Positions 1,010 to 61,340 of a stretch of 64,000 nt of DNA are shown piece after piece (the stretch's first letter is position 1; every line of letters starts with the position of its first letter). This DNA comes from Sulfuritalea hydrogenivorans sk43H. GTDB lineage: Bacteria > Pseudomonadota > Gammaproteobacteria > Burkholderiales > Rhodocyclaceae. The translations under genes and the position numbers were made by a program. The notes under the pieces were generated by a model. It was not told the origin of the DNA. It made no database searches and saw only the letters and a list, made by a program, of their open reading frames with translations. The stretch spans positions 3,720,001 to 3,784,000 of the forward strand of contig NZ_AP012547.1 in assembly GCF_000828635.1 (NCBI RefSeq). The letters run 5' to 3'.

Positions 1010-2119
1010 ATGGATAAAATCGATTGTGCCGTCATCGGCGCCGGCGTCATCGGCCTGGCCGTGGCCCGCAAGCTGGCCGCCGCCGGCCGCGAAGTGCTGA
1101 TCCTCGAAAGCGAAAATGCCTTCGGCACCGGCATCAGCGCGCGCAACAGCGAGGTGATCCATGCCGGCATCTACTATGCCGCCGGCTCGCTCAAGGCGCG
1201 CCTGTGCGTCGCCGGTCGCCGCATGCTCTACGCCTACTGCGCCGAGCGCGGCATCGGCCATCGGCGCTGCGGCAAGCTGATCGTCGCCACCCGCGACGAT
1301 CAGCTTGCACGGCTCGACGGCATCGCAGCGGCCGCCCGCAGCAATGGCGTGGATGACCTGCAATTCCTGTCGCGCAATGAAGCCCGCGCGCTGGAACCGG
1401 CGCTGGAATGCACGGCCGCGCTGCTGTCGCCCTCGACCGGCATCATCGACAGCCACGCCCTGATGCTCTCGCTGCTGGGCGACGCGGAACGCGACGGCGC
1501 CGTGCTGGCGCTCAACAGCCCGGTGCGCGGCGGACGCGTCGACCGTGACGGCATCATGCTCGAAGCAGGAGTCGGCGCTGGCGAGACGGCGATCCTGGCG
1601 CAAAGCGTGGTGAATTGCGCCGGACTCGGCGCCCAGGGCATCGCCCGCGCCTTGCGCGGCCTGTCGCCGGCATCCGTGCCGCCGCTGCACTATGCCAAAG
1701 GCAACTACTACTCCCTGGCCGGTCGCGCGCCGTTCTCGCGCCTGATCTACCCGGTGCCGGAAGCAGCCGGCCTCGGGGTGCATCTCACGCTCGACCTTGG
1801 CGGGCAGGCGCGCTTCGGTCCCGACGTGGAATGGATCGAGAACATCGACTACGCGGTCGCGCCTGAACGCGCCGACGCCTTCTACGCCGAGGTGCGCCGC
1901 TACTGGCCGCAACTGCCCGACGGCGCGCTGCTGCCCGCCTATGCCGGCATCCGACCCAAGCCGCACGCGCCCGGCGCGCCGGCCTGCGATTTTCTGGTTT
2001 CAGGTCCGGCCGAACATGGCGTGCCAGGTTTGGTCAACCTGTACGGCATCGAATCACCGGGCCTGACGGCCAGCCTCGCGCTCGCCGACCATGCGGTTGC
2101 CAGCCTCAGCGGCCCGTGA
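1010..2119 (+). CDS. NAD(P)/FAD-dependent oxidoreductase, L-2-hydroxyglutarate oxidase-like
   Basis: 369 residues of the DAO/LhgO family. The FAD-binding Rossmann motif is at the extreme N-terminus ([19 protein letters not shown]), which fixes the start at ATG 1010. [15 protein letters not shown] and the C-terminal GIRPKPH and [14 protein letters not shown] are typical of L-2-hydroxyglutarate dehydrogenases and related amino-acid oxidases. The substrate cannot be fixed from sequence. A copy of the dispersed 20-base motif encodes VGAGETA around residue 190, in a variable part of the substrate domain. The 3' end overlaps the convergent enoyl-CoA hydratase gene by 14 bases. Confidence 0.85.
1571..1590 (+). 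repeat. dispersed 20-base motif, exact copy
   Basis: GTCGGCGCTGGCG-AG-ACGGC inside the FAD oxidoreductase gene, sense orientation, read as VGAGETA. One of ten copies matching all 18 fixed positions. Confidence 0.85.
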
Positions 2120-2882
2120 ATTTCGGCGCCCGCTTTTCCAGAAACGCCGCCATTCCTTCGGCGTAATCCTGCGTATCGAGGAAGGCGAAGGACGCGCGCT
2201 TTTCTTCCAGGCTCAAGGGACGATTCTCCATCAGCCGCGCGATCCACTGCTTGTGCCAGCGCGCCACCAGCGGCGCGCCCGAGGCGATGCGCGCCGCCGT
2301 TGCCTGCGCTTCGCGCTCCAGCTCGGCATCGGCCACCATCCGCGTCAACAAGCCCTTGGCATAGGCCTCGGCGGCGCTCAGCAGGCGTCCTTCAAGCAGG
2401 ATTTCCTTGGCCACGGCGGGGCCGGCCAGTTTGAGGAAGCCCGCGAGTTCGCCGGGGTACATGGAGAAGCCCAGCTTCATGATCGGCGCGCCGAAGCGCG
2501 CGCTGTCGCCGGCTATGCGCAGGTCGCAGGCACAGGCGATTTCCAGGCCGCCGCCGACGCAGGGGCCGAGGATCGCGGCCAGCGTGGGATGCGGGCAGGA
2601 CTCGATGGCGGCCAGCGCGGCGCCCACTGCCTCGTGGTAGGCCAGCGCCCGGTCGACATCGGCGCGCGCGGTGCGGAATTCTTCGAGGTCGCCGCCGGCG
2701 GCAAAGACCGGGCCCTCGCCGCGCACGATGACGCAACGCAGTGAAGCGTCGGCCGCCAGCTCGCCCATGACTTCGCGCAGCCGTCGCCACATCGCCGCGT
2801 TCAGCGCATTGAGCTTTTCCGGATTGAAGAGGGTGACGGTGGCGATCACGCCGTCACGCTCAAGGAGGATGTCGGGATTCAT
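2106..2882 (-). CDS. enoyl-CoA hydratase/isomerase family protein
   Basis: 258 residues with the crotonase fold. [13 protein letters not shown], the oxyanion-hole blocks ([29 protein letters not shown]) and [15 protein letters not shown] are seen. The first catalytic Glu of hydratases (GGGLE) is kept. The second (PEILLG in rat hydratase) aligns with PIMKLG, so no Glu is present there. Simple hydration of trans-2-enoyl-CoA is therefore doubtful; an isomerase or another crotonase activity is as likely. It is last in a minus-strand operon after the MFS gene (11-base gap). Confidence 0.85.
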
Positions 2883-2893
2883 GATTCAAAACC

Positions 2894-4180: not shown

Positions 4181-4707
4181 GCCGGAAAAGCCTCCGCCCA
4201 CCACAGCCTCGCCTTGAGGCCCCAGGTTGTCGCATAGCCGACCACGCGGAAACGCACATTGCCCCGCGCATCGACCACGAAATGCGTCGGCACGCTGCGC
4301 ACGCGCCAGTTCATCGCGTGGCGGCCATCGGCATCGATCAGTTGCGGCAGATCGATGCCGCGCTCCTTCAGATGCTTCAGCACCGTCGCCGCATCGCCCG
4401 ACTGCATGGCCACCGGAATCACGCGATGGTCCCGCGCCACGGCAACGATGTTGTCTTCCTCCGCCTTGCACACCGGGCACCAGGTCGACCAGAAAGCCAC
4501 CAAAGTCGCCGTCTCGCCAGCGCCGACTCTTGCATGCGTTCCATCAGTGAGCACACCGGCGAGCGGCGGTGCCGCGCCCTCGGGCAGGCCGCGCGTCTGC
4601 CAGTACTGGGCGCCAAGGATGACGGCGAGGATCAGGCCGGCTTCGAGCAGGCGGCGTTGCCAGCGTTTGGCGGGAAGCAAATTGCGGAAATTGAAAGTGT
4701 CGCTCAT
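4177..4707 (-). CDS. membrane-anchored thioredoxin-like disulfide oxidoreductase (ScsD/TlpA-like)
   Basis: 176 residues. One N-terminal membrane anchor (LLEAGLILAVILGAQYW), then a periplasmic thioredoxin domain with active site WCPVC in VAFWSTWCPVCKAEE and the cis-Pro loop RSVPTHFVVD. The C-terminal GYATTWGLKARLWWA is typical of ScsD-like protein disulfide oxidoreductases. Start set at ATG 4707 (MSDTFNF); an upstream TTG at 4758 is possible. A copy of the 20-base motif encodes VGAGETA immediately before the strand leading into CPVC, where homologues have a variable turn. First gene of a three-gene operon. Confidence 0.85.
   Translation of the reverse strand: MSDTFNFRNLLPAKRWQRRLLEAGLILAVILGAQYWQTRGLPEGAAPPLAGVLTDGTHARVGAGETATLVAFWSTWCPVCKAEEDNIVAVARDHRVIPVAMQSGDAATVLKHLKERGIDLPQLIDADGRHAMNWRVRSVPTHFVVDARGNVRFRVVGYATTWGLKARLWWAEAFPA
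4508..4527 (-). repeat. dispersed 20-base motif, exact copy
   Basis: GTCGGCGCTGGCG-AG-ACGGC on the minus strand, sense to the thioredoxin-like gene, read as VGAGETA. Confidence 0.85.
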
Positions 4708-4871
4708 ATCCGGCCGAATCTTAGCGGACGCAGCGGGTTTTCGCGGCAGGCGCCCCAACGCGGCTCAAGCAAGCGATTGGCGGGCTTGCCTTTCGAATTG
4801 CGCCGATATTGCCGGTTTCGCCCAACTGCCGCACAATGCATCGCATGTGGTACCGCATCTTGTTACCTGCC

Positions 4872-8978: not shown

Positions 8979-9083
8979 ACGCCGGGAGTTCCCGGAGGGA
9001 CGCACGGCGCTGGCGCCGGCGGCACGGCAGCGCCTGGCACGGATGCTAAAATCCGCGTCAATTCAAGCCCTTCCTTTCCATCT

Positions 9084-12779
<3,696 letters not shown>

Positions 12780-16589: not shown

Positions 16590-17501
16590 TCAGTTGCGCA
16601 GATACATCGGCGCCACGCTTTCCAGCGGCGTCGCCTTGCGGCCGAAGGGCAATGCGCAACCGGCGTCGCATACGCTGGCGACCTGCATCGAGCGAATGTT
16701 GTCGCGCGTCATCGGGCCGTTGGGAATGAACTCCATGGCCCAGGCCTGCAGCCACGCAATGCCATGCGGCAGGCCGATCACGGCGCGCGGATGGCCCGAG
16801 ACGGACGCCGCGTAACTGACCAGCTGGCGCAGGCTGTACTGCGTCGGACCGCACAGATCGTAGCGGGCACCGATGCTGTCGGACCGCGACAGGCTGTCCG
16901 CCACGGCGGCGGCAACGTCCTCCACCCACACCGGCTGGAAGCGCGCCTCGGCACCGGCCAGCGGGAAGAAGGGCGCGATCATCGCCATGCGCGCGAACAG
17001 CGTAAGGAAGGAATCGCCCCGCCCGAAGATTACCGAGGGCCGAAACAGCGTGAGATCGAGCCCGGCATCGCGCAGCGTCGCCTCGCCCGCCGCCTTGGAG
17101 CGCAGATAGCCGGAAGGCGCATCGGCTGCGGCTTTCAGCGCGGAGACATGCAGCACCCGGCGCACGCCGGCCGCCTTCGCCGCCGCGGCGATTTTCCGCG
17201 GCAGCTCGACATGGGCGCGGGCGAAGCCCTTGCCGTAAGGCTCGCCTTCGCCGCCCTTGAGGATGCCGACCAGGCTGATCACGGCATCCTGCCCGGCCAT
17301 CAGCCGGGCCAGCGTCGCCGGATCATGGACGTCCGCGTCGACCACGCGTACGGTGGGCAGCACCAGAAGATGCTTGGCCTTTTCGCGACGGCGCGTCGGT
17401 AGCGTAAAGCAACAGTCGGCGCTGGCGGGACGGCGAGCCAGTTCGCGCACGATGGCGCTGCCCAGAAACCCGGTGCCGCCAATCACCAGAATGTTTTTCA
17501 G
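16590..17501 (-). CDS. NDUFA9-like NAD(P)-binding protein, apparent CTG start
   Basis: 303 residues, atypical short-chain reductase of the complex I NDUFA9 type. The dinucleotide motif GGTGFLGSAIVRELA is at the very N-terminus and DLTLFRPSVIFGRGDSF lies mid-protein. The first strand is KNILVIGG, so the start must be just upstream. The only suitably placed codon is CTG at 17501, seven bases after GGAGG and overlapping the upstream stop (CTGA). The next option, GTG at 17486, would delete half of strand 1. A 20-base motif copy encodes RPASADC around residue 20. Confidence 0.85.
   Translation of the reverse strand: MKNILVIGGTGFLGSAIVRELARRPASADCCFTLPTRRREKAKHLLVLPTVRVVDADVHDPATLARLMAGQDAVISLVGILKGGEGEPYGKGFARAHVELPRKIAAAAKAAGVRRVLHVSALKAAADAPSGYLRSKAAGEATLRDAGLDLTLFRPSVIFGRGDSFLTLFARMAMIAPFFPLAGAEARFQPVWVEDVAAAVADSLSRSDSIGARYDLCGPTQYSLRQLVSYAASVSGHPRAVIGLPHGIAWLQAWAMEFIPNGPMTRDNIRSMQVASVCDAGCALPFGRKATPLESVAPMYLRN
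17415..17434 (+). repeat. dispersed 20-base motif, exact copy
   Basis: GTCGGCGCTGGCG-GG-ACGGC, antisense to the NDUFA9-like gene, read as RPASADC after the first helix of the Rossmann fold. Confidence 0.85.
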
Positions 17502-19453
17502 GGCAGTTCCTCCACGCCCTTCTCGCCCTGTCCGCGCGCGCCGATCACGCCCAGCGTGCTTTTCAGCGACTGCGGGCGGCCGGAAAACAGCGTGTTGTAA
17601 TACACCGCGTTGCTCATGACCTTCTTGACGTAATCGCGGGTTTCGCTGAAGGGGATGGTCTCGGCATAGATTGCGCCTTCCAGGGGGTGTTCCGCGCGCC
17701 ATTTGCGGGCCCGGCCGGGGCCTGCGTTGTAGGCCGCGGAAGCCAGTACCGGATGGTTGTCGAGCGAGTCGAGCACCATCTTCATGTAGTTGGTGCCGAG
17801 CGTGACATTGGTGTCCATTTCGGTCACCCGCGCCGGGTGGAAGTTGCTCAGGTTGATTTTCTTCGCCACCCATTTCGCCGTGGCGGGCATGAGTTGCATC
17901 AAGCCCTTGGCGCCGACCGAGGACTTGGCGTTCATGATGAAGCGCGATTCCTGCCGCATCAGGCCATATACCCAACCGTTGTCGAGCGCCAGCTGGTCGG
18001 CCTTGGGTCGCACCTGATCGCTGAAGGGCGCAATGTAGCGCAGGCCGTAATTGTGCTGCGCCAGCGTGCGGTCGGCGGTATTGATGGCGCGATCCCAGAT
18101 CTCATGGCGCCGGGCGAACTCCGCGGCGGCGAGCAAGGCCCTGTCGTCCATGCCGCGCAGCGCCCATGCCCATTCGCGGATGCCTTCGAGGCGCATATCG
18201 ACGCGGAACAGCGCCAGCGCCCGGCGAAAACCCTGATTCGCTTCGGCGACGGCAAGCTCTTCCGCGCTGGGGGGCGTCGCGTGCGGCGGCACTTCGATCG
18301 TGCGGCCCAGCTCCTCGTCGGCAAGATTGCCGTAGAAGTTGGGCTGGCCGCCGATCTTCAGAAACAGCGCACGGGCCTCGCCGGGCTGCCCGCCGGCAGC
18401 CAGCGCGCGCGCCAGCCAATAGGTCCAGTCCGGCTGTGCGGCGATGTTGGGCGACATGGCGCCTATCGCGCGGCGCACCGCGCTCCAGTCATGCACCCGC
18501 AAGGCAGCGCGCACATGCCACGCCCGCTGCTCTTCGGACAGAGTCGTGCCGACCGCTTTTTCATACCAATCCAGGGCCTCGGGCTGGTGCCGCAGCGCCG
18601 TCTGCCAGGCGATCTGGCCCCAGGCGTAGGCGCGTTCTTCGGCGCTGAATTGCGCTTCGATGCGCGACCAGCGTTTTGCCGCATCCTGCGGATCGTTGCG
18701 CGCCAGGCGCTGCACCGCGAACAGCGCCACTTCGCGCCCGCCGCGTTTTGCGGCAAAGCCGGCCGGGAGCTTGTCGAAATACCGTGCCGGGCTTTGCGCG
18801 ATGGATTCCAGGCCGCGTCCGTCGAAACCTTCGCTGGCCGGCAAGTAGGCAGCCGCGCTGCGCGCTGCGCCCACGCGCTTGGCTTCGAACAGCCGGCGCA
18901 CGCGCTGCCAGACTTCTTCCACCGTCAGGCCGCCGGCCGCAACCATCTGGTCGACCAGCGTCTCGCAGGCTTGCGGCAGATCCTGCCCGCTGTTCCAGTA
19001 GGGCCGCACCGAATCCGGGGTGTTTGCGGCCTGCGCCGCGTAGCAACTTGTTTCGGCGTCGGGCACCATCAAGGCCGGCAACTCGCGCCTGAAGCTTTCC
19101 CAGTCGCCTTTCTTGCCCATCACGCGCAGCCAGTCGCCGCGCAATTTCTCCGCAAGATAGGCGCCCTGGTAACGGCCCAGATAGTCGGCTACCCCGCTTT
19201 CATCGCCATCGTCCAGACGCAGCCGCAAGGCCCAGTATTCGGCCCAGGCCTGCAGGGGATGCCCTTGCAACGCCTCGATCTGCCGCCCCAGACGAACCCG
19301 TTCGCCGTTGCGAAAAGCCTCCCGCGCCGACAAGAAAACCGTATCGCCGCGCTCGGCATAAGTCGGCGCTGGCGCCACGGCGATCCCCATGAAGGTCGCG
19401 GCGACAAGGCCGATGCGGCATAGAGACGTGACAGAGTTGGGGTTATAGTTCAT
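17498..19453 (-). CDS. slt: soluble lytic murein transglycosylase
   Basis: 651 residues. Signal peptide, a long alpha-helical TPR-like U-domain (about 40-460), then the SLT catalytic domain with GLMRQESRF carrying the catalytic Glu, SSVGAKGLMQLMP, NVTLGTNYM and AYNAGPGRARKW. Cleaves peptidoglycan to 1,6-anhydromuropeptides in the periplasm. A 20-base motif copy lies directly behind the signal peptide, giving VAPAPTYAERG. First gene of the slt - NDUFA9-like - cca operon, divergent from the cyclo-ligase gene 43 bases away. Confidence 0.93.
   Translation of the reverse strand: MNYNPNSVTSLCRIGLVAATFMGIAVAPAPTYAERGDTVFLSAREAFRNGERVRLGRQIEALQGHPLQAWAEYWALRLRLDDGDESGVADYLGRYQGAYLAEKLRGDWLRVMGKKGDWESFRRELPALMVPDAETSCYAAQAANTPDSVRPYWNSGQDLPQACETLVDQMVAAGGLTVEEVWQRVRRLFEAKRVGAARSAAAYLPASEGFDGRGLESIAQSPARYFDKLPAGFAAKRGGREVALFAVQRLARNDPQDAAKRWSRIEAQFSAEERAYAWGQIAWQTALRHQPEALDWYEKAVGTTLSEEQRAWHVRAALRVHDWSAVRRAIGAMSPNIAAQPDWTYWLARALAAGGQPGEARALFLKIGGQPNFYGNLADEELGRTIEVPPHATPPSAEELAVAEANQGFRRALALFRVDMRLEGIREWAWALRGMDDRALLAAAEFARRHEIWDRAINTADRTLAQHNYGLRYIAPFSDQVRPKADQLALDNGWVYGLMRQESRFIMNAKSSVGAKGLMQLMPATAKWVAKKINLSNFHPARVTEMDTNVTLGTNYMKMVLDSLDNHPVLASAAYNAGPGRARKWRAEHPLEGAIYAETIPFSETRDYVKKVMSNAVYYNTLFSGRPQSLKSTLGVIGARGQGEKGVEELP
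19362..19381 (+). repeat. dispersed 20-base motif, exact copy
   Basis: GTCGGCGCTGGCG-CC-ACGGC, antisense to slt, read as AVAPAPT at the signal-peptide junction. Confidence 0.85.
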
Positions 19454-23368: not shown

Positions 23369-24543
23369 AGACTCGCGGCCCGGGACAAGCGCACCAGGGC
23401 TTCGTCGAGCAGCGCGCGCCGCGTGCCGAAATTGAGGCGGACGAAACCCGGCGCCCCGAAATCCGCGCCGTCGGAAAGCCCCAGTCCGTGCCGCTCGAAC
23501 CAGCGGGCCGGATTGTCGATGCCGCGATCCGCGGCAAACTCGCGCGCATCGATCCACGCCAGGTAGGTCGCCTCCACCGGCCGCATGTCGAGGCCTGGCG
23601 TCGCGGCCACCGCCCGCTCGACGGCGCGCAGGTTGCCGCGCAGATAATCGAGCAGGGCGGCGTGCCAGTCGTCGCACAAGGTGAGTGCCGCCTCGTTCGC
23701 CACCATGCCCAGGGCATTCACGTGCGGCACGATGCCATGCATGGCCTCGCGAAAAGCGCGGCGCAGGCGGCTGTCGGGAATGACCGCGAAGGCACAGCCG
23801 AGACCGGGAATGTTGAAGGTCTTGGACGGCGCCATCAGGGTAATGGTGCGCGCCGCCAATTCGGGGCTTAGCGTCGCGAAAAGTCGGTGCCGGCGGGACG
23901 GCGACAGGATCAGGCCGTTGTGGATTTCGTCGGAACAGACCACCAGATCGTGCTTTTCCGCGAGCAGCGCGATCTGCCACAGTTCGTCGTCGTTCCACAC
24001 CCGCCCCGTCGGATTGTGTGGATGGCAGAGCAGGAACAGCTTGGCCTGACTGCTCTTGAGCACCGCATCGACGGTGGGGAAATCCCACAGCCAGCCCGCC
24101 GAGTCGCGCACCAGCGGAGCGCTCGCCACCCGCCGGCCGGAGAATTTCGGCGCCGAAAGAAAGGGCGGATAAATCGGCGTCGCGGTAAATGCCGCATCGC
24201 CCGCCGTTCCGACCGCGCGGCAGGCGACATTGAGCCCGGACACCAGACCGGGCAGCCAGACCAGCCATTCGGGGTCGATGGTCCAATCGAACGTGCGGGC
24301 GACATAGCCCACCACGGCATCGATCTGGCTCCGGGTGGGCTGGTTGTAGCCGAACACGCCATGATCGATGCGTTGCCGCAGCGCGCTGATGACCGGTGGC
24401 GGCGCGGCGAAGTCCATGTCGGCGACCCAAAGCGGGATCACGTCGCGAACCGCCTCGTTCGGACCTTGGCCAGCGGCATATTTCGCCCACTTCACCGAAT
24501 CCGTGTTGGCCCGATCCAGAACTGCGTCAAAATCAAAGCTCAT
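23365..24543 (-). CDS. PatB/MalY-type aminotransferase (cystathionine beta-lyase-like)
   Basis: 392 residues, fold-type I PLP enzyme. WVADMDF near the N-terminus, NPTGRVW, SDEIHNGL and the PLP lysine in MAPSKTFNIPGL are diagnostic of the PatB/MalY subgroup, which cleaves C-S bonds of cystathionine and related thioethers. Start MSFDFDAVLDR at ATG 24543. The upstream region has two overlapping palindromes (24583-24614). A degenerate copy of the 20-base motif lies at 23883 (SRRHRLF). The TAA stop lies in the MITE-like repeat. Confidence 0.9.
   Translation of the reverse strand: MSFDFDAVLDRANTDSVKWAKYAAGQGPNEAVRDVIPLWVADMDFAAPPPVISALRQRIDHGVFGYNQPTRSQIDAVVGYVARTFDWTIDPEWLVWLPGLVSGLNVACRAVGTAGDAAFTATPIYPPFLSAPKFSGRRVASAPLVRDSAGWLWDFPTVDAVLKSSQAKLFLLCHPHNPTGRVWNDDELWQIALLAEKHDLVVCSDEIHNGLILSPSRRHRLFATLSPELAARTITLMAPSKTFNIPGLGCAFAVIPDSRLRRAFREAMHGIVPHVNALGMVANEAALTLCDDWHAALLDYLRGNLRAVERAVAATPGLDMRPVEATYLAWIDAREFAADRGIDNPARWFERHGLGLSDGADFGAPGFVRLNFGTRRALLDEALVRLSRAASL
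23883..23902 (+). repeat. dispersed 20-base motif, 16 of 18 fixed positions
   Basis: GTCGGTGCCGGCG-GG-ACGGC, antisense to the patB-like gene. Confidence 0.55.
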
Positions 24544-43200: not shown

Positions 43201-43614
43201 ATGGACTTCGCTTACACGGCGGAAGCCGGTTTGGCCGGCCTGTTTCTCGCCAGCTTTCTTTCCGCGACGCTGCTGCCGGGCGGCTCCGAAGCCGTGCTGT
43301 TCGCCGTGATCAAGCTGCATCCCGAGCAAACACTGCCGGCACTGCTGCTGGCGACGCTGGGCAACACGCTGGGCGGCATGACCACCTACGCCATGGGCCG
43401 GCTGCTGCCGCAACACCTTGCCCCGGAGAAATCGGCGCTGGCGAGACGGCGCGGACCGCCGATCCTGCTGCTGGCCTGGGCACCGATCATCGGCGATGCC
43501 CTGTGTGCCGCCGCCGGCTGGCTGCGTCTGGCGCCGCTGCCCTGCGCACTGTGGATGGCGACCGGGAAAGCCGCGCGCTATGTGCTGGTGGCGGCCGGCG
43601 CCGGGATGGTCTGA
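43201..43614 (+). CDS. YqaA/DedA-like small membrane protein
   Basis: 137 residues with about four hydrophobic helices. ATLLPGGSEAVLFAVI and ATLGNTLGGMTTYAMGRLLP match the YqaA branch of the SNARE-associated/DedA family. Function unknown, possibly lipid scrambling as in the wider family. A near-exact 20-base motif copy encodes SALARRR in the central loop. Tail-to-tail overlap of 37 bases with the MATE gene. Confidence 0.8.
   Translation: MDFAYTAEAGLAGLFLASFLSATLLPGGSEAVLFAVIKLHPEQTLPALLLATLGNTLGGMTTYAMGRLLPQHLAPEKSALARRRGPPILLLAWAPIIGDALCAAAGWLRLAPLPCALWMATGKAARYVLVAAGAGMV
43431..43450 (+). repeat. dispersed 20-base motif, 17 of 18 fixed positions
   Basis: ATCGGCGCTGGCG-AG-ACGGC, sense in the YqaA-like gene, read as SALARRR between two membrane helices. 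Confidence 0.75.
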
Positions 43615-44945
43615 GCCGAGATGCGCAGGAAGTAGGCCAGCACGCCGAGACCCGCAATCGTCAGGCTCGCCACGCCCGCCAGCCAGAACCCGGCGGCGCC
43701 GCGTGCCGCACCGAACATGTCGGTCAGCCCCAGCAGATAACCGCCGCCAAGGCCCACGCCCCACAGCGCCACGGCATAGATCGCCATCGGCGCCATGGAA
43801 CGCTTGTAGCCGCGCAGCACCTGCGCCATGACCGCCTGCACGGCGTCGGCCACATGGTAGAAGGCCACGATGGCCAGCAACGTCGCAGCAGCGGCCGCGA
43901 CCTGCGGGTCGGCGGTGTAAGCCCGAGCCAGCGGACGGGCACCGAAGAAAATTGCCGTGCCGACCAGCAGCGCAACGCCGCAGCCGACGCCCAGCCCGAG
44001 CAGGCCGGCGTGCCGCGAGCGCCGACTGTCGCCGGCGCCCAGCGCCTGGCCGACCAGCACGCCGGTGGCACTGCCCAGCGCCATCGGCACCATGAAAACG
44101 AAGACCGCGACGTTGGCCGCAATCTGGTGCGCCGCCGATGTTTCCGGCCCGAGCCGGGCGATGAACAAGGCCATGAAGGTGAAGGCCGTGACGTCGACCA
44201 TGAAGGTCGCCCCCATCGGCAAACCGAGCAGCAACAACTCGCGCAGGGCCGGCAGGCGCGGCCACTCGAAGCGGGCAAACACGCCATAGACGGCATAGTC
44301 GATATCGCGCCGGCACCACAGCCAGGACAGTGTGGCGACGGTCCAGGTGATCACCGCCGTAGACCAGCCGCAACCGGCACCGCCCAGCGCCGGAAAACCG
44401 AAATGGCCGTACATGAAAACCCAGTTGAGCGGCGCCTTCAGCGCCAAACCGAGCAGGTTGAAGAACATCACCGGGCGCGGCCGGCCGATGCCGGTGGTGA
44501 AGCCGTAGAACACCCGGAAGAACAGCACGCCCGGCACCGCCCAGGCCACGCCGTCGAGATAGGCGCGCACTTTCACTTCGACCTCCGGCGTCAGGCGCGA
44601 AAACCGCAGCAGCAGGTCGGGATGCTTCAGCACGGCGAACGCAACCAGCGACAGGCCCAGCGCCAGCCAGGCGCATTGCCGCACGTCGGCGCCGATCTCG
44701 GCGAAGCGCTTCGCGCCGTAGTGATGCGCCACCACCGGGGTAAGCGCCAACAGCACGCCCATCGCCGTGACAAAGACGATGGCATAAATGCTGGCGCCGA
44801 TGCCGACCGCCGCGAGATCGACCGACGAAAGCCGGCCGGCCATCAGCGTGTCGATCACGCCATTGGCCATCACCGCCGCCTGGGCGATCAGCACGGGCCA
44901 GGCGAGGTGCAGCAGTTCGCGCGGAAGGGAACGTGGGGCTGACAT
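43578..44945 (-). CDS. MATE-family efflux transporter
   Basis: 455 residues, twelve predicted helices in two similar halves (PVLIAQAAVMANGVIDTLMA; GLPMGATFMVDVTAFTFMAL) as in NorM-type multidrug/Na+ or H+ antiporters. GQALGAGDSRRSRHAG marks the interdomain-type loop, where a degenerate 20-base motif lies. Substrate unknown. Confidence 0.9.
   Translation of the reverse strand: MSAPRSLPRELLHLAWPVLIAQAAVMANGVIDTLMAGRLSSVDLAAVGIGASIYAIVFVTAMGVLLALTPVVAHHYGAKRFAEIGADVRQCAWLALGLSLVAFAVLKHPDLLLRFSRLTPEVEVKVRAYLDGVAWAVPGVLFFRVFYGFTTGIGRPRPVMFFNLLGLALKAPLNWVFMYGHFGFPALGGAGCGWSTAVITWTVATLSWLWCRRDIDYAVYGVFARFEWPRLPALRELLLLGLPMGATFMVDVTAFTFMALFIARLGPETSAAHQIAANVAVFVFMVPMALGSATGVLVGQALGAGDSRRSRHAGLLGLGVGCGVALLVGTAIFFGARPLARAYTADPQVAAAAATLLAIVAFYHVADAVQAVMAQVLRGYKRSMAPMAIYAVALWGVGLGGGYLLGLTDMFGAARGAAGFWLAGVASLTIAGLGVLAYFLRISAQTIPAPAATST
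44007..44026 (-). repeat. dispersed 20-base motif, 16 of 18 fixed positions
   Basis: Minus-strand GTCGGCGCTCGCG-GC-ACGCC in the MATE gene, next to the family motif GQALGAG. Confidence 0.5.
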
Positions 44946-46332: not shown

Positions 46333-46983
46333 TTACTTGGCCGGCGCGGGTGCGGGAGTCGGCGCTGGCGCCACGGCGGGTGCGGCGGCGGGCGGCGCGT
46401 CGAACTTGATCGCCGGCGGCGTCGACATCGCCTTTTCATCCTCGACCGTGAAATTGGCCTTGGTCTGCCAGCCCATGACCATCGCGGTCAGGTTGTTGGG
46501 GAAGGTGCGCACCGAGACGTTGTACTCCTGCACCGACTTGATGTAGCGGTTGCGCGCCACGGTGATGCGGTTCTCGGTGCCCTCCACCTGCGCCTGCAGG
46601 TCGCGGAAATTGGCGTCGGCCTTGAGGTTCGGGTAGTTTTCCGCGACGACCAGCAGCCGCGACAGCGCCCCGCCCAGTTCGCCCTGGGCCTTCTGAAACT
46701 TGGCGAAGGCGGCCGGGTCGTTGATCAGCTCGGGCGTGGCTTTCATCCCGGCGACATTGGCGCGCGCCTCGGTCACGCGGGTCAGCACGTCCTTCTCGTG
46801 GCTGGCGTAACCCTGCACCACCGACACCAAGTTGGGAATCAGGTCCGCGCGGCGCTTGTACTGGTTCAACACCTCCGACCACGCGGCATTCACCGCCTCG
46901 TCGTTGATCTGGATCTGGTTGTAACCGCAGCCGGACAGCAGGGTCGCCGCAAGGGCCAGCACGGCAAAGAGGCGCATACGCAT
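46333..46983 (-). CDS. lemA: LemA-family lipoprotein
   Basis: 216 residues: lipoprotein signal ([20 protein letters not shown]), then the LemA four-helix fold ([60 protein letters not shown]). A short Ala/Pro tail ([15 protein letters not shown]) includes a copy of the 20-base motif; most LemA proteins lack such a tail. Start at ATG 46983. Confidence 0.92.
46358..46377 (+). repeat. dispersed 20-base motif, exact copy
   Basis: GTCGGCGCTGGCG-CC-ACGGC, antisense to lemA, read as AVAPAPT in the C-terminal tail. Confidence 0.85.
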
Positions 46984-47120: not shown

Positions 47121-47140
47121 GTCGGCGCTGACCACACGCC
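47121..47140 (+). repeat. dispersed 20-base motif, degenerate, intergenic
   Basis: GTCGGCGCTGACC-AC-ACGCC (15 of 18) between lemA and the FAD oxidoreductase gene; the clearest copy outside coding sequence. Confidence 0.45.
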
Positions 47141-47205: not shown

Positions 47206-50200
47206 ATGACCGCCCGCCTGCGCGAAATCCCCTACAACTACACCTCGTTCTCCGACCGCGAGATCGTCATCCGCCTGCTCGGCGCGGAGGCTTGGGCGAC
47301 GCTGAACGAATTGCGCGCGGAGCGCGTCACCGGCCGCTCCGCGCGCATGCTCTACGAAGTGCTGGGCGACATCTGGGTGGTACGGCGCAATCCCTATCTG
47401 GAAGACGACCTGCTGGGCAATCGCGAACGGCGCGAGGCGCTGGTGGAGGCCCTGCGCCACCGGCTGCGCGAAATCGACAAGCGGCGTGAGGTTGGCACAC
47501 CCCGGAACGAGCGCGTCGCACTGTTGCTGACCGCCGCACAGGCCGCCGTGCAGTCCTTCGAGCGCTGGTTCGAGGAAACCCGCAGCCTGCGCAAGAAGGC
47601 GTTGAAGGCGCTGGCCCGCCACACGCGTCGCGACAACATCTGTTTTGACGGCCTGGCGCGCGTCTCGCATGTGACGGACGCCACCGACTGGCGTGTCGAG
47701 TATCCCTTCGTCGTGCTGGCGCCCGACACCGAAGATGAGATGGCGCCGCTGGTGCGCGCCTGCATCGAACTCGGCCTGACCATCATCCCGCGCGGCGGCG
47801 GCACTGGTTACACCGGCGGCGCGGTGCCGCTGGATGCCCTCTCGGTGGTGATCAACACCGAAAAGCTGATCGATCTCGGCGCCGTCGAGATGAAGCGCCT
47901 GCCCGGAACCGACAGGGACTACGCGACGGTGCGCACCGGCGCCGGGCTGGTTACGCGCCGCGTCATGGAAGCGGCTGAGAAAGCCGAGCTGGTGTTCGCC
48001 TGCGACCCGACCTCGGCTGACGCCTCCTGCATCGGCGGCAACATCGCGATGAACGCGGGTGGCAAGAAGGCGGTGCTGTGGGGCACGGCGCTGGACAACC
48101 TGGCCTCGTGGCGCATGGTGACACCCGACGGCAACTGGCTGGACGTCGAGCGCCTCAACCACAATTTCGGCAAGATCCACGAACAGGAAACTGTCAGCTT
48201 CCGCCTCGTGCGCTGGGACGCGACAGGAAAGAAGAAGCTCGGCGAGGAGCAACTCGACGTGCCGGGCCGGCTGTTCCGCAAGGAAGGCCTCGGCAAGGAC
48301 GTCACCGACAAGTTCCTCGCCGGCATTCCGGGCGTGCAGAAGGAAGGCACCGACGGCCTGATCACTTCGGCGGTGTGGGTGTTGCACAAGATGCCGCCGG
48401 TGACGCGCACGGTCTGCCTGGAATTCTTCGGCCGCGTCACCGACGCCGTGCCCTCCATCGTCGAGATCACCGATTACTTCAAGCCGGGCGGCGCGGGACT
48501 CGCCGCCGGCGTGCAACTTGCCGGCCTCGAACACCTCGACGAACGCTACGTGCGCGCCGTCGGCTATGCGACCAAGGCAAAACGGCACGGCCGGCCGAAG
48601 ATGGTGCTGATCGGCGACATAGTCGGCGCCGACGACACGGCGGTGATGGCCGCCGCATCCGAAGTGGTACGCATGGCCAATGCGCGCGGCGCCGAGGGCT
48701 TCATCGCCGTCTCGCCCGAGGCGCGCAAGAAGTTCTGGCTCGACCGCGCGCGCACCGCGGCGATTTCGAAGCACACCAACGCCTTCAAGGTGAACGAGGA
48801 TGTGGTGATTCCGCTGCCGCGCATGGGCGACTACTGCGACGGCATCGAACGCATCAACATCGAACTCTCGATCGCCAACAAGATCGAACTGGCCGACGCG
48901 CTGAGCGAATTTCTCAAGGGCGAACTGCCGCTGCATGCGGGTGACGCCAACCTCGACCCGGAGCTGCTGCTGGGCGACAAGCGCGAGCAGGCATTGGAGC
49001 TGATCGCCGAGGTGCGTGCCGGCTGGCAGGGCCTGCTCGACAATCTCGACCGGCATTTCGCCGAGTTGCAGGATTACCGTTTGCGCGTGTCGTGGAAGAC
49101 CGAACTCAAGGCGCCGCTGGAAGCCCTGTTCGACGGCAATGCCTTCCGCCCGGTGCTGGAGCGGATCACGGCGATCCACCAGGAAGTGCTGCGCGGCCGC
49201 GTCTTCGTCGCCCTGCACATGCACGCCGGCGACGGCAACGTGCACACCAACATCCCGGTGAATTCCGACCACTATGCGATGCTGCAGACCGCCTACAAGG
49301 CCGTCGAACGCATCATGGCTCTGGCCAAGTCGCTGGGCGGGGTAATCTCCGGCGAACATGGCATCGGCATCACCAAGCTGGAATTCCTTGGCGACGACGA
49401 GATCCGCCCCTTCCGCGACTACAAGCAGAAGGTCGACCCGGACGGCTGCTTCAATCGCGGCAAGCTGATGGCGGGTGGCGATCTGGCCAACGCCTACACG
49501 CCGTCGTTCGCGTTGCTCGGCGTCGAGTCGCTGATCATGGAGCAATCCGACGTCGGCAGGATTTCCGAGTCGATCAAGAACTGCCTGCGCTGCGGCAAGT
49601 GCAAGCCGGTGTGCTCGACCCATGTGCCGCGCGCCAACCTGCTCTACAGCCCGCGCAACAAGATCCTCGGCACCTCGCTGCTGATCGAAGCCTTCCTCTA
49701 CGAAGAGCAGACCCGGCGCGGCATTTCGCTGCAGCACTTCGACGAATTTTCCGACGTCGCCGACCATTGCACCGTGTGCCACAAGTGCGTGACGCCCTGC
49801 CCGGTGGATATCGACTTCGGCGACGTCTCGGTGGCGATGCGCAACTTCCTGCGCCGCCAGGGCAAGAAAAAATTCAATCCGGGCACGGCGGCGGCGATGG
49901 GCTTCCTTTCCGCCACCGACCCGGCAACCATCAAGCTGGTGCGCGCCGGCATGATCCAGCTCGGCTACAAGGCGCAGCGCCTCGGCCACGCACTGGCGAA
50001 ATCCTTCGGCCTGATCCAGGACAGCGTCAAGCATCCGCCGGCCACGCTGGGGCGCCCCGAACTCAAGGCGCAGGTGATCCATTTCCTCAACAAGCCGATG
50101 CCGAAGGACGTGCCCAACCGCACCTCGCGCGCCCTGCTCGACGTCGAGGACGACAGCCTGATCCCGGTGATCCGCGACCCGCAGCGAACTGCCGAGGATT

Positions 50201-50991
50201 CCGAAGCGGTGTTCTACTTTCCCGGTTGCGGCTCGGAGCGACTGTTCTCGCAAGTCGGGCTGGCCACGCAGGCCATGCTCTGGCATGCCGGCGCCACCAC
50301 GGTGTTGCCGCCGGGCTACCTGTGCTGCGGCTATCCGCAGACCGCCAGCGGCGACGAGGACAAGGGCCAAGCCATCACCACGGCCAACCGCGTGCTGTTC
50401 CACCGCGTCGCCAACACGCTGAACTACCTCGACATCAAGACCGTCGTGGTCTCCTGCGGCACCTGCATGGACCAGTTGCTGAAGTACGAGTTCGGCAAGA
50501 TATTCCCCGGCTGCCGGCTGGTGGACATCCACGAATGGCTGTTCGAAAAAGGCATCAAGCTCGATGGCGTGAAAGGCATGCAGTACATGTACCACGAGCC
50601 CTGCCACACGCCGATGAAACACTATTCGGGCGTCAAGGTGGCCAACGCGCTGATGGGCCAGCGCGTCGATCTCAGCGATCGCTGCTGCGGCGAATCGGGA
50701 TCGCTGGCCGTTTCGCGGCCCGATGTGTCGACCCAGATCCGCTTCCGCAAGCAACAGGAAATCGAGGCAGGTGCTGCCGAACTCAGAAGAGTCGGCGCCG
50801 GCGGTACGGCGGTGAAAATCCTCACCTCCTGCCCCTCCTGCCTGCAAGGCCTGTCGCGCTACGAGAACGATGCGGATATTTCCGCCGACTACATCGTGGT
50901 CGAAATGGCCAGGGCGATCCTCGGTCCCGACTGGATGCAGAACTACCTGCGCGCGGCCAACAGCGGCGGCATTGAACGGATACTGCTTTGA
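47206..50991 (+). CDS. fused DUF3683 / FAD-linked oxidase / Fe-S / CCG-domain oxidoreductase
   Basis: 1261 residues, start [20 protein letters not shown] at ATG 47206. Order: DUF3683 (about 1-150), FAD_binding_4 ([20 protein letters not shown]), FAD-oxidase C-terminal domain ([16 protein letters not shown]), two 4Fe-4S clusters ([11 protein letters not shown] near 793, [11 protein letters not shown] near 855), and two cysteine-rich CCG domains (CCGYPQ near 1040, CCGESG near 1160). This equals GlcD plus GlcF in one chain, so a membrane-linked 2-hydroxyacid (glycolate or D-lactate) dehydrogenase is likely; the substrate is not proven. A possible -10 TACAAT lies at 47170. Confidence 0.9.
48622..48641 (+). 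repeat. dispersed 20-base motif, 16 of 18 fixed positions
   Basis: GTCGGCGCCGACG-AC-ACGGC in the FAD oxidoreductase gene, read as VGADDTA. It may instead reflect a native codon run. Confidence 0.45.
50791..50810 (+). repeat. dispersed 20-base motif, 17 of 18 fixed positions
   Basis: GTCGGCGCCGGCG-GT-ACGGC, sense, read as VGAGGTA between the last two CCG-domain segments. Confidence 0.75.
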
Positions 50992-56939: not shown

Positions 56940-57809
56940 ATGAAGCGATTGGTGATTGCCGTCTTTGCGGCGGTGGTTGGATTGGGCTTGATGGTTCCGG
57001 ATGCCGAAGCCCGGCGTCTGGGTGGCGGCAAGTCGGCCGGCATGCAGCGCCAGGCGACACCCGCTCCCACGGCACCGGCTGCGGCCGGCAAGCCTGCGGC
57101 CGCTCCGGCCGCAGCAGCGGCACCCGCGGCTGCGGCCAAGCCGGCCGGCATGAGCCGCTTCCTCGGCCCCCTGGCCGGCCTCGCCGCCGGTCTTGGCATC
57201 GCCGCGCTGCTGTCGCACTTCGGCCTCGGCGAAGGCATGGCCAACATGCTGCTGATTCTCGCACTGGGCATGGTGGCATTCTTCGTCATCCGCTGGCTCA
57301 TGAGCAAGCGCACTCCCCAAGCCGGCATGCAGTACGCCGGTGCCGGCCCCGGCAATGCCGCTCCGGCGAATTTCACGCCCGCTCGATTCGAAGGCTCGGG
57401 GGTCGGCGCTGGCGCTACGGTGGCCGCTGCTGCCGGAAACATCCCCGCCGATTTCGACGTGGAAGGTTTCCTGCGCCAGGCCAAGCTCAACTTCGTGCGC
57501 CTGCAGGCGGCCAACGACCGTGGCGACATGGACGACATCCGCGAGTTCACGGCGCCCGAGTTGTTCGCCGAGATCAAGCTGCAGCATCAGGAACGTGGCG
57601 GCCGCAACCAGGAAACCGACGTGATGCAATTGAACGCAGAACTGCTCGAAGTCGCTACCGAGGAAGGTCGCCACGTGGCCAGCGTGCATTTCTCCGGCCA
57701 GTTGCGTGAGGACAGCGGCACACCGGAAGCCTTCGCCGAAACCTGGCATCTGGTGAAGCCTACCGACGGCAGCCGCGGCTGGAACGTGGCCGGGATCCAG
57801 CAGGTCTGA
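56940..57809 (+). CDS. Tim44-like domain protein
   Basis: 289 residues: signal or anchor (VIAVFAAVVGLGLMVPDAEA), an Ala/Pro-rich stretch, two helices (about 75-125), then the Tim44-like domain (about 165-288; DVEGFLRQAKLNFVRLQAAN, LQHQERGGRNQETDVMQLNA). Bacterial Tim44-like proteins have no firm function; this position beside ubi genes is common in betaproteobacteria. A near-exact 20-base motif copy encodes VGAGATV in the linker before the domain. Confidence 0.85.
   Translation: MKRLVIAVFAAVVGLGLMVPDAEARRLGGGKSAGMQRQATPAPTAPAAAGKPAAAPAAAAAPAAAAKPAGMSRFLGPLAGLAAGLGIAALLSHFGLGEGMANMLLILALGMVAFFVIRWLMSKRTPQAGMQYAGAGPGNAAPANFTPARFEGSGVGAGATVAAAAGNIPADFDVEGFLRQAKLNFVRLQAANDRGDMDDIREFTAPELFAEIKLQHQERGGRNQETDVMQLNAELLEVATEEGRHVASVHFSGQLREDSGTPEAFAETWHLVKPTDGSRGWNVAGIQQV
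57402..57421 (+). repeat. dispersed 20-base motif, 17 of 18 fixed positions
   Basis: GTCGGCGCTGGCG-CT-ACGGT, sense in the Tim44-like gene, read as VGAGATV in the interdomain linker. Confidence 0.75.
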
Positions 57810-59650: not shown

Positions 59651-59706
59651 CGGACACCCCGAAAAATGGAAGTGTCCGACTCATTGCAAGCATCAGGCCA
59701 GCACCG

Positions 59707-59903: not shown

Positions 59904-59910
59904 TTCTTCG

Positions 59911-59935
59911 GCGGATGGCACTCGGTGCCATCCGC
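59911..59935 (-). terminator. perfect hairpin after the NodT-like gene
   Basis: GCGGATGGCAC-TCG-GTGCCATCCGC, 11-base perfect arms, one base after the stop of the outer-membrane gene. No T-run. It may terminate the RND operon or belong to the MITE-like repeat, since CATCCGC also precedes copy 2. Confidence 0.55.
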
Positions 59936-59936
59936 G

Positions 59937-61340
59937 TTAAGAGGGCTTTGCCTCCGCCACGCCGCCACCCAGCGCCTTGTAGAAACTTGCGGCCGTCGCC
60001 AGCAACTGCCGCCGTACCGCCAGCGCCGACTGTTGCGCGGCAAAATGTTCGCGCTGGGCATCGAGCAGTTCGAGATGGCTGGAAACGCCGGCCTGGTAGC
60101 GCGCCTCGACAATCTTCAGGCGCTGGCCCTGTGCGGCAACATTGGCTTCCTGCGCCTGAAGCTGTTCGGCCAGCTGGCTGCGCGCCGCCAGCAGGTCGGC
60201 AATTTCGCGGAAGGCCAGCTGGATGCTCTTCTCATACTCGGCCACGGCGATGTTCTTGCGCGCCTTTGCCAGATCGACGTTGTCGGTGCTGCGCCCGGCA
60301 TCGAACAGCGGCAGGCGCAAGACCGGCGTGAAACTCCAGGCACCGCTGCCGGCATCGAACAACCCGGAGAGACCCCTGCTGGCAGTTCCGGCGGCGGCCG
60401 TCAGCAGGATCTTCGGCAGGAAGGCGGCGCGCGCGGCGCCGATGTTGGCATTGGCCGCAATCAATTTCTGCTCGGCGGCCAGCACGTCCGGACGGGCCAG
60501 CAGGATTTCCGCCGGCAGGCCCACCGCGACGTCGGCAACCAAGCCCTGTTGCGCCAGCTTGCCGCCCCCGGCCGCCGCCGGTGAACTGCCCACCAGCAGA
60601 CGCAAGGCGTTTTCCGCCGCCGCATGGCTGCGCGCCAGATTGGCGACTTCCGCGCGCGCATTCTGGAAGGCGCCGTCGGCTTGCAGAAAATCGAGGTCGC
60701 CGGCCAAGCCGACGTCGCGGCGGCGCGCGACCAGAGTGCGGGTTTCTTCGCGGCTCTTCCGGGTGGCCTGCGCCAGCTCAAGCCGCTCGCCAAGTTCCAG
60801 CAGGCTGAAATACGCATTGGCGACGTCGGCAATCAACGACAGGCGGAAGGCCTGGTGCGCAAAGTCGCTGGCCAGGAAATTGGCGCGCCCGGCATCATCG
60901 AGGCTCTTCACCCGTCCCCAGAAATCCAGCTCGAACGAAGCCACCGCCAGATTGACGTCGTAACGCTGGCTGTTCTGCTGGCGGCCGGTGCCGGACAGAT
61001 CCGCCGGCGTCAGCGATGCCGCGCGTTGCGCGGCAAGATCCACGGTCGGAAACCGGTCGGCGCGGGCAATGCCCGCCAGCGCACGGGCCTCATCGACACG
61101 CCCGATGGCGATGCGCAGATCGCGGTTGTGTTCCAGCGCCGCGGCGATCAGGCCCTGCAAGTGCGCATCGGGGAAAAATGCGCGCCAGTCGGTGCCGAAC
61201 GGCGCGCCTTTCGCCGTATCGCCAGCGCCGACTGTCATCGGCCAGGCAGTCGGCACCGGCGCCGCGGGCCGCTGGTAATCGGGAGTGAACGAACAGCCGG
61301 CCGCGGCAAGGGCAATGGCGAGAGGAAGGAATTTACGCAT
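59937..61340 (-). CDS. NodT-family outer-membrane efflux lipoprotein
   Basis: 467 residues: lipoprotein signal (LPLAIALAAAGCSFTPDYQR), two OEP/TolC-like repeats (helical barrels; RADRFPTVDLAAQRAASLTP, AGNARAAFLPK-type segments such as IGAARAAFLPKILLTAAAGT). Outer-membrane channel of the tripartite RND pump encoded upstream; its start overlaps the pump stop by eight bases. It contains two exact 20-base motif copies (60011, 61213), read as SALAVRR and VGAGDTA. Confidence 0.93.
   Translation of the reverse strand: MRKFLPLAIALAAAGCSFTPDYQRPAAPVPTAWPMTVGAGDTAKGAPFGTDWRAFFPDAHLQGLIAAALEHNRDLRIAIGRVDEARALAGIARADRFPTVDLAAQRAASLTPADLSGTGRQQNSQRYDVNLAVASFELDFWGRVKSLDDAGRANFLASDFAHQAFRLSLIADVANAYFSLLELGERLELAQATRKSREETRTLVARRRDVGLAGDLDFLQADGAFQNARAEVANLARSHAAAENALRLLVGSSPAAAGGGKLAQQGLVADVAVGLPAEILLARPDVLAAEQKLIAANANIGAARAAFLPKILLTAAAGTASRGLSGLFDAGSGAWSFTPVLRLPLFDAGRSTDNVDLAKARKNIAVAEYEKSIQLAFREIADLLAARSQLAEQLQAQEANVAAQGQRLKIVEARYQAGVSSHLELLDAQREHFAAQQSALAVRRQLLATAASFYKALGGGVAEAKPS
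60011..60030 (-). repeat. dispersed 20-base motif, exact copy
   Basis: Minus-strand GTCGGCGCTGGCG-GT-ACGGC in the NodT-like gene near its C-terminus, read as SALAVRR. Confidence 0.85.
61213..61232 (-). repeat. dispersed 20-base motif, exact copy
   Basis: Minus-strand GTCGGCGCTGGCG-AT-ACGGC in the NodT-like gene, read as VGAGDTA shortly after the lipoprotein signal. Confidence 0.85.

What the first reader, a model, noticed from the sequence alone, without database searches (positions are those of the whole stretch)
1571..61232. A 20-base motif (GTCGGCGCTGGCGNNACGGC) is scattered through coding sequences in about twenty copies
Seen directly. Ten copies match all 18 fixed positions (1571, 4508, 10084, 12243, 17415, 19362, 37226, 46358, 60011, 61213). 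About nine more differ by one to three bases, and one at 33342 is doubtful. Both strands are used (roughly 12 plus, 7-8 minus), sense and antisense to the host gene. It is read in several frames (VGAG[DE]TA, SALAxRR, RPASAD, AVAPAPT). The two NN positions vary freely. The sequence has no stop in any frame, which would let it spread inside genes. Chance cannot explain ten exact 18-position matches in 64 kb. I do not recognise it as a described element. Candidate roles are a DNA-uptake or recognition signal, a nucleoid- or replication-associated site, or a minute mobile insertion.
Basis: seen in the sequence. Interest (0 to 1): 0.87.

Follow-up and report, generated by a model that had tools for sequence, protein, structure and literature searches.

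The report
Genome-wide DNA uptake-like tag with dialects
A DNA word of some twenty bases is sprinkled hundreds of times through the genomes of a group of environmental bacteria, with a slightly different spelling in some lineages, much as some other bacteria tag their DNA so that relatives can recognise and take it up; if that is its role, it is a self-recognition tag in a family where we found none described.

Summary
The window holds 21 copies at up to 3 mismatches (0.72 expected). The genome holds 318 exact copies, balanced between strands; the reversed pattern has none. In a 464 kb sample it is the most over-represented word, about one copy per 4.8 kb, far above a codon-shuffled null, read in several frames, about 2.6-fold enriched between genes. 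All 30 congeners carry it (3-311 copies) and five other genera of the family have 29 or more copies; 386 genomes of other families have 0-4. Crucially, it has dialects. Three sister genomes spell GTT for GTC (199-237 copies; 0 in this genome) and one GTAGAC (106 copies), and both changes are seen in place at orthologous sites; samples of two other genera show two further spellings. Many sites changing together imply something that reads them in trans. Filled and empty sites often have equal length, so it is not a fixed-length insertion; there is no replichore bias. Best explanation: a DNA-uptake (self-recognition) sequence of the Neisseria/Pasteurellaceae kind, longer and sparser, in another family. 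Uptake is not shown and no receptor was identified.

The parts
1571..1590 (+). motif copy, exact; in FAD-dependent oxidoreductase (DAO) gene 1010-2119 +, frame VGAGETA
4508..4527 (-). motif copy, exact; in thioredoxin-like (AhpC/TSA) gene 4177-4707 -, frame VGAGETA; orthologous copies are GTT in G015 and G027
8986..9028 (+). longer variant (type B: AGTTCCCGGAGGGACGCA...GCGCTGGCGCCGGCGGCACGGC) that contains the 3-mismatch hit at 9009; between called genes
10084..10103 (-). motif copy, exact; antisense in metH-like gene 9084-12779 +; 8 of 8 empty orthologues have the same length as the filled form
10962..10981 (+). motif copy, 2 mismatches; metH-like gene, frame VGAGDTL; GTT in G015 and G027
12243..12262 (+). 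motif copy, exact; metH-like gene; the site that looks most like an insertion (11 of 12 empties 18 or 30 nt shorter)
17415..17434 (+). motif copy, exact; antisense in NAD-epimerase-like gene 16590-17486 -; filled (<=2 mismatches) in 12 of 15 aligned genomes, GTT in G015 and G027
19362..19381 (+). motif copy, exact; antisense in lytic transglycosylase (SLT) gene 17498-19390 -
23883..23902 (+). motif copy, 2 mismatches; antisense in called gene 23365-24543 -
34501..34520 (+). motif copy, 1 mismatch; between called genes
37226..37245 (-). motif copy, exact; in called gene 36855-37379 - (no Pfam match), frame SALAARR
41189..41208 (-). motif copy, 2 mismatches; in CHASE2/guanylate cyclase gene 39742-41646 -
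43431..43450 (+). motif copy, 1 mismatch; in called gene 43201-43614 +, an uncertain call
44007..44026 (-). motif copy, 2 mismatches; in called gene 43578-44945 -
46358..46377 (+). motif copy, exact; in the 5' part of called gene 46222-50991 +, which is probably over-extended upstream, so the host is uncertain
47121..47140 (+). weak match, 3 mismatches; may be chance
48622..48641 (+). motif copy, 2 mismatches; frame VGADDTA; GTT in G015, GTC in G027
50791..50810 (+). motif copy, 1 mismatch; frame VGAGGTA
57402..57421 (+). motif copy, 1 mismatch; in called gene 57150-57809 +; GTT in G001, G015, G027; GTAGAC in G010; long type B forms in G004, G012, G016, G022
60011..60030 (-). motif copy, exact; in outer-membrane efflux protein (OEP) gene 59937-61238 -, frame SALAVRR; GTC kept in G001, G015, G027, where C to T would change Ser to Leu
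61213..61232 (-). motif copy, exact; same OEP gene, near its called start; GTT in G001, G015, G027; GTAGAC in G010

Best explanation
The motif (RARA-GTCGGCGCTGGCG-NN-ACGGC-GA) is a DNA-uptake or self-recognition sequence. A DNA-binding protein of the natural-transformation apparatus, most likely a minor type IV pilin, binds it and so favours uptake of DNA from the same or close species; fragments that carry the motif are recombined in, so copies spread and are kept by biased uptake (molecular drive), settling where protein sequence or intergenic space tolerates them. When the reader protein changes its preference, copies across the genome drift to the new spelling, which gives the dialects. 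Shown here: the genome-wide repeat, its strand balance, its dialects, in-place change at orthologous sites for two of them, and its near-restriction to one family.
For: Most over-represented word in 464 kb of its genome: the first 38 of 80 listed 11-mer rows (19 words and their complements) are pieces of it or of its C-for-T variant. 318 exact copies, 154/164 by strand, control 0. Dialects: GTTGGCGCTGGCGNNACGGC has 199, 230 and 237 copies in G001, G015, G027 and 0-5 in the other 28 of 31 genomes; GTAGACGCYGGCGNNACGGC has 106 copies in G010 and 0 in the other 30; in samples of two other genera G152 spells GTCGAC (12 of 15 hits) and G358 CTC..GCGG (12 of 19 hits; reversed control 5). G001, G015 and G027 form one clade (support 1.0 in the one tree that has all three). 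In-place change: over 8 sites shared with other genomes the three GTT genomes have T in 12 of 17 genome-sites, the others (G010 apart) in 0 of 40; G010 has A at position 3 in 4 and at position 5 in 6 of 13 shared sites, the others in none. At 60010 all three GTT genomes keep C, where the change would be non-synonymous. In G000 position 3 is C in 96 of 96 copies (as invariant as positions 4 and 7), whereas T9 is C in 22 of 96: a position that sets the dialect is among the most guarded. Leading/lagging 43/53. 31 of 96 copies intergenic against 12.5% of the sample not called coding. Two inverted pairs with loops of 5 and 6 nt and one in G001 (C62:27726/27753), an arrangement described for DUS (PMC3630211, section 11). 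No copy in eight 4-kb bins of GC < 0.58 (about 6.6 expected at the mean density). First and second codon positions less conserved in the motif than in flanks (0.79 against 0.89) but third positions slightly more (0.72 against 0.67) over 13 sites: permissive places, as reported for DUS (PMC2397512 passages). [quoted passage not shown] ComEC in 30 of 31 and DprA over cut-off in 28 of 31 genus genomes.
Against: I know of no uptake or transformation experiment in this group, and no receptor was identified: ComP_DUS (PF16732) is in 30 of 31 genus genomes but also in 68 of 80 genomes of the order, 67 over the cut-off, so it says nothing. G016 keeps ComEC and DprA yet has almost no motif. DprA over the cut-off is missing in G004 (99% complete, 311 copies), G013 and G001 (a GTT genome); ComEC is missing in G030 (79% complete). 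Density (about 1 per 4.8 kb with near-copies) is below that of Neisseria. Third positions are more conserved than flanks at only 7 of 13 sites. No inverted pair closer than 120 bases was found in 169 loci of relatives, only one direct pair (GTC form only). Copy density rises with GC over all bins, so the low-GC result may be composition. The longer variants (types B to E) and the cassette array of L064, where nine copies in 6.1 kb all point one way, are not explained by uptake alone.
Confidence: 0.62

Rival explanations
1. The motif is the binding site of an intracellular chromosome protein (nucleoid, segregation, replication or recombination factor), which would also force a concerted change of spelling when the protein changes.
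For: Dialects need only a trans-acting reader, not an uptake receptor. Copies are spread round the chromosome.
Against: No orientation bias on the replichores in the sample (43 leading, 53 lagging), unlike polar sites of the FtsK or Chi type (recalled); no concentration near origin or terminus in the sampled stretches. Hundreds of copies exceed the site families of this length that I recall. G016 and G346 have almost none, so it is dispensable over evolution. Low-GC bins have none, which uptake predicts, but composition may explain it.
Confidence: 0.18
2. The motif is a tiny mobile element (or the common remnant of a family of short hairpin elements, types B to E) that inserts in frame in genes, like Rickettsia palindromic elements.
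For: The sharp mismatch spectrum with no excess at 4-5 mismatches means that whole copies appear at once. Longer forms with hairpin inserts of 15-27 nt and up to about 70 nt occupy the same points. Site 12243 looks like an insertion.
Against: 10 of 19 sites (8 of the 14 with at least two filled genomes) have a same-length empty orthologue, and length differences scatter in both directions. Little is conserved beyond -3 to +24 around the copies, and I saw no flanking duplication, though I made no formal search for one. The spelling changes in place across orthologous sites, which independent decaying copies would not do; position 3 is C in 96 of 96 copies.
Confidence: 0.12
3. The repeat is a protein-level or codon-usage effect (a common GAG-type peptide in a GC-rich genome).
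For: The commonest sense frame reads VGAGxTA (27 of 38 sense copies).
Against: 26 of 64 coding copies are antisense, several frames are used, 31 of 96 copies are intergenic; codon shuffling leaves 0-1 copies at <=1 mismatch against 44; the reversed pattern has 0 in the genome.
Confidence: 0.01

Closest known systems
DNA uptake sequence (DUS) of Neisseriaceae, read by minor pilin ComP
   Same: Most over-represented word of the genome, both strands, coding and intergenic, inverted pairs that can form hairpins, dialects that differ by one or a few bases between related species, family members without it, appearance by block replacement.
   Different: About 22 conserved positions with a two-base gap (about 34 bits) against 10-12 bases; 318 exact copies here (385 with a looser pattern; about 790 with near-copies by extrapolation) against 943-5918 in the DUS genomes named in PMC3630211 section 6; another family; receptor unknown.
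Uptake signal sequence (USS) of Pasteurellaceae, predicted receptor PpdA/ComN
   Same: Dialects within a family (Hin-USS and Apl-USS, in passages of PMC12616744), many copies in both orientations, motif with conserved flanks (the last two recalled).
Rickettsia palindromic elements and other short in-frame inserts
   Same: Short repeats tolerated inside coding genes (recalled; the review PMC2229807 was seen only in a search listing).
   Different: No fixed insertion length, and concerted in-place change of spelling.
HIP1 of cyanobacteria, Chi, KOPS
   Same: Genome-wide over-represented short words (recalled).
   Different: Those are 8-base or polar words (recalled); this one is long, non-palindromic and unpolarised.

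Membership tests
DNA uptake sequences (DUS/USS) | Most over-represented word, hundreds to thousands of copies | tested here: met
DNA uptake sequences (DUS/USS) | Both orientations, no replichore polarity | tested here: met
   154/164 in the whole genome; leading 43, lagging 53 in the sample
DNA uptake sequences (DUS/USS) | Dialects between related species, changing in place | tested here: met
   two further spellings in samples of other genera, not tested for in-place change
DNA uptake sequences (DUS/USS) | Permissive positions and intergenic enrichment | tested here: met
   31 of 96 intergenic with home-made gene calls; 1st/2nd codon positions 0.79 against 0.89 in flanks
DNA uptake sequences (DUS/USS) | Inverted pairs forming hairpins | tested here: inconclusive
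   two pairs among 96 copies of G000; none in 169 loci of relatives; one in the listing for G001
DNA uptake sequences (DUS/USS) | Copies themselves more conserved than their surroundings | tested here: inconclusive
   third positions 0.72 against 0.67 overall, higher than flanks at 7 of 13 sites, clear at widely shared ones (60010 0.95/0.68, 10961 0.84/0.60)
DNA uptake sequences (DUS/USS) | Absent from recently acquired DNA | tested here: inconclusive
   0 copies in eight 4-kb bins of GC < 0.58, but low GC is only a proxy and density rises with GC throughout; the cassette array of L064 is rich in the motif
DNA uptake sequences (DUS/USS) | Natural-transformation machinery present | tested here: met
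   ComEC 30 of 31, DprA over cut-off 28 of 31; not diagnostic, since 10 of 14 control genomes have each over the cut-off
DNA uptake sequences (DUS/USS) | Sequence-specific surface receptor | tested here: inconclusive
   PF16732 pilin in 30 of 31 but in 68 of 80 of the order; the G000 copy lies directly upstream of other prepilin-like ORFs, i.e. pilus-operon-like (by eye)
DNA uptake sequences (DUS/USS) | Presence of the motif raises DNA uptake or transformation | not testable with these tools
   needs a competent culture
Short mobile insertion element | Filled sites longer than empty sites by a constant length | tested here: not met
   10 of 19 sites have a same-length empty; differences from -30 to +140 nt
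Short mobile insertion element | Copies decay independently after insertion | tested here: not met
   concerted in-place dialect changes, invariant position 3
Polar chromosome sites (KOPS, Chi) | Strand bias from origin to terminus | tested here: not met
   (sample of 464 kb)

The most novel reading that the evidence does not exclude
An independently evolved self-DNA recognition system, outside Neisseriaceae and Pasteurellaceae, with at least five dialects across several genera of one environmental family, its own unknown receptor, and gene cassettes of integrons that carry the tag and so travel preferentially between cells of the same dialect.
Probability: 0.35. Interest if true: 0.92.

Novelty: new variant of a known kind. 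Interest (0 to 1): 0.82.

Why it matters
In the papers I could see, uptake sequences are described from two families, Neisseriaceae and Pasteurellaceae, and why they evolve is still debated. A further family with one common spelling, four others and two genomes with almost none would allow the receptor to be sought by co-variation with the spelling, and drive models to be tested on independent dialect shifts. It would also mean that DNA exchange in these environmental bacteria is partitioned by sequence.

Tried and rejected
Genus restriction: one search suggested that the motif is limited to one genus (6 other-genus family members had 0-1 copies); the wider search showed five other genera with 29 to 317 copies in most of their sampled genomes, so I dropped that claim. 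Rfam at gathering threshold (0 matches) and tRNA search (none) on the window gave nothing. ComP_DUS as a marker of the receptor was dropped. That G016 might use a long type B form: its over-represented word is CGCAGAGGCGCAGAG, a different repeat, and one type B copy was seen. That stray clusters of copies in other genomes are integron cassettes: only L064 clearly shows attC-like sites; the 18 stretches L317-L334 do not show such arrays by the simple core search used. Co-variation between pilin sequence and dialect was not tested; I only printed pilin-like ORFs found by a crude pattern. Gene calls come from a home-made codon-usage caller and some are doubtful (43201-43614; the 5' part of 46222-50991), so the coding/intergenic split and frame counts are approximate. 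The printed output was cut in the middle; the table was made from the stored result of that run and leaves out orthologues whose motif segment is not 22 bases long (for example site 4507, where G015 and G027 also have T). The genus and family searches of other spellings find only the spellings asked for, so genomes listed with few copies could carry another spelling.

Literature: 'DNA uptake sequence' + dialect + Neisseriaceae 44 papers, 12 listed; 'DNA uptake sequence' + Rhodocyclaceae 0; Sulfuritalea + repeat 46, 15 listed, none on this by title; a five-term uptake-signal search 0; novel or putative uptake sequences 76, 25 listed; palindromic elements 13, 10 listed; motif strings 0; 'uptake sequence' + Burkholderiales + transformation 1, on N. 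meningitidis mutants; Sulfuritalea + natural transformation 0. Papers seen: PMC3630211 outline, abstract and sections 6 and 11; PMC2397512 (some from its abstract), PMC4212676 and PMC12616744 passages only; all others only as search listings.
Full report
WHAT IS THERE. The pattern GTCGGCGCTGGCGNNACGGC occurs 21 times in the window at up to 3 mismatches, 10 of them exact, against 0.72 expected. The genome (G000, one contig of 3,802,648 bases; the window is 3720001-3784000) has 154 exact copies on one strand and 164 on the other; the pattern read backwards has none. In a spaced sample of 464 kb (twenty 20-kb stretches plus the window) the first 38 of 80 listed over-represented 11-mers (19 words and their complements) are pieces of it or of its C-for-T variant. 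The mismatch spectrum to the 22-base form is 39, 32, 19, 6 and 6 at 0 to 4 mismatches, against 0, 0, 0, 1 and 7 for the reversed pattern: 96 copies at up to 3 mismatches, about one per 4.8 kb, by extrapolation about 790 in the genome. The conserved stretch runs from an A/G-rich tetranucleotide before GTC to GA after the 20-mer, about 34 bits.

NOT A CODING EFFECT. Of 96 copies, 64 lie in called genes, 31 between genes and 1 at an edge, while 87.5% of the sample is called coding. In genes 38 copies are sense (27 of them in the VGAGxTA frame) and 26 antisense. Shuffling synonymous codons within genes leaves 0-1 copies at up to one mismatch (44 observed) and 6-15 at up to three (64 observed) in each of 20 shuffles.

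WHERE IT OCCURS. All 30 congeners held carry the GTC form, from 3 copies (G016) to 311 (G004). One of them, G010, has a contig of the same length (206,597) as JAOTRV010000004.1, titled Sulfuritalea sp. isolate MAG2, so the genus is probably Sulfuritalea in a broad sense; G000 itself is unnamed. With a pattern that covers several spellings (GTNGRCGCYGGCGNNACGGC), 297 genomes of the family were searched: G000 385, G010 396, G027 273; in other genera G116 146, G145 287, genus g32 62-317 in nine of eleven genomes (but G346 0 and G358 3), g106 36-265 in four, g123 29-133 in nine, G130 14, G152 13; the rest 0-8, mostly 0-3. In 399 genomes of the order the 386 from other families have 0-4 copies each.

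DIALECTS. GTTGGCGCTGGCGNNACGGC: G001 199, G015 230, G027 237, against 0 in G000 and 0-5 in the other 27. GTAGACGCYGGCGNNACGGC: G010 106, none in the other 30. In samples of other genera G152 has AGTCGACGCTGG in 12 of 15 hits (reversed control 0) and G358 an ACTCGGCGCTGGCGNNGCGGCG-like form in 12 of 19 hits (reversed control 5; its top word is another repeat). 11-mers of the common AAAAGTCGGCGCTGGCG form head the list in G116, G145, G130, G206, G218, G230, G252 and G324; G346 has nothing comparable. Three trees from different regions put G015 and G027 together (support 0.996, 0.918, 1.0), with G001 beside them in the one region that has it (1.0); G022, a GTC genome, is their next neighbour in two of three. 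At shared orthologous sites the GTT genomes have T in 12 of 17 genome-sites, the others (G010 apart) in 0 of 40; G010 has A at position 3 in 4 of 13 and at position 5 in 6 of 13, the others in none. Site 4507, where the GTT genomes differ in length, also has T in G015 and G027 (not in the count). At 60010 the three keep C, where C to T would turn Ser to Leu. In G000 position 3 is C in 96 of 96 copies, as are G4 and G7 invariant, while others drift (T9 is C in 22, G11 is A in 10). A reader that acts in trans is the natural explanation.

INSERTION OR SUBSTITUTION. Orthologues at window sites were aligned across up to 17 genomes. Of 19 sites with filled and empty members, 10 have an empty of the same length as the filled form (8 of the 14 sites filled in at least two genomes), and the other differences scatter from -30 to +140 nt. 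At 10084 all 8 empties have the same length and the block is simply different. One site (12243) looks like an insertion: 11 of 12 empties are 18 or 30 nt shorter. Longer versions sit at the same points: type B (AGT, a 15-21 nt hairpin, then the rest), type C (GTTATGCGAAGCGGTATCCCC...GGGACGGCGCTGGCG, 4 in the 464 kb sample), and forms of about 60-90 nt. I cannot explain these.

DISTRIBUTION. By GC skew of the sample the terminus is near 1.9 Mb; copies on leading and lagging strands are 43 and 53 (summed by hand). Eight 4-kb bins with GC under 0.58 hold none, but density rises with GC in all four classes (0, 0.62, 0.87, 1.29 per bin), so composition may be the cause. Two inverted pairs with loops of 5 and 6 nt form perfect hairpins in G000; 169 loci of relatives hold no such pair. 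At 13 window sites in genes the motif's third codon positions are slightly more conserved than the flanks (0.72 against 0.67, higher at 7 of 13 sites), first and second positions less (0.79 against 0.89).

COMPARISON. Neisseria DUS: very abundant repeat, dialects, inverted pairs, family members without any (PMC3630211 sections 6 and 11); [quoted passage not shown] The present motif shares several of these and is undecided on others (see the membership test); it differs in length, density and family. ComEC and DprA are present in nearly all congeners, also in G016, which all but lacks the motif; a receptor is not identified.

VERDICT. A real, dialect-forming recognition sequence of one family; an uptake sequence is the best explanation (0.62), another trans-acting DNA-binding protein the main rival (0.18). 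The searches named in Tried and rejected found no report of it.

Noticed in passing
L064 1-6122 (JALHPU010000019.1): Cassette array with attC-like sites (GTTGGGC cores at about 292, 1378, 1968, 2910, 4738, 5240, five of them with a long inner imperfect repeat) carrying nine motif copies (<=1 mismatch) in 6.1 kb, all on one strand: apparently integron cassettes unusually rich in the tag; no integrase was looked for.
   Followed up: partly
window 56711-56925 and 59706-59940: Inverted copies of a roughly 215-bp repeat with many further matches in the congeners searched (11 genomes).
   Followed up: no
window 14290 (-): Word TCCGCAGATTTCGC, 8 copies in the 464 kb sample and none in the relatives' loci scanned then: a separate repeat with imperfect symmetry.
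   Followed up: no
window 8986-9028; L172 10623; L174 5162 and 17210; L187 17195; L185 16987: Longer hairpin-bearing variants of the motif (types B, C, E) with the insert after AGT or inside the core.
   Followed up: partly
L191 7142-7223; L194 1076-2207 (G016): G016, which all but lacks the motif, has a different short repeat CGCAGAGGCGCAGAG.
   Followed up: no
L317-L334: In genomes of the family or order with only a few copies, several of the listed copies lie close together, as if brought in on transferred DNA or by contaminating contigs.
   Followed up: partly
window 24001-32000: Stretch of lower GC (0.596); no copy between 23902 and 34501.
   Followed up: no
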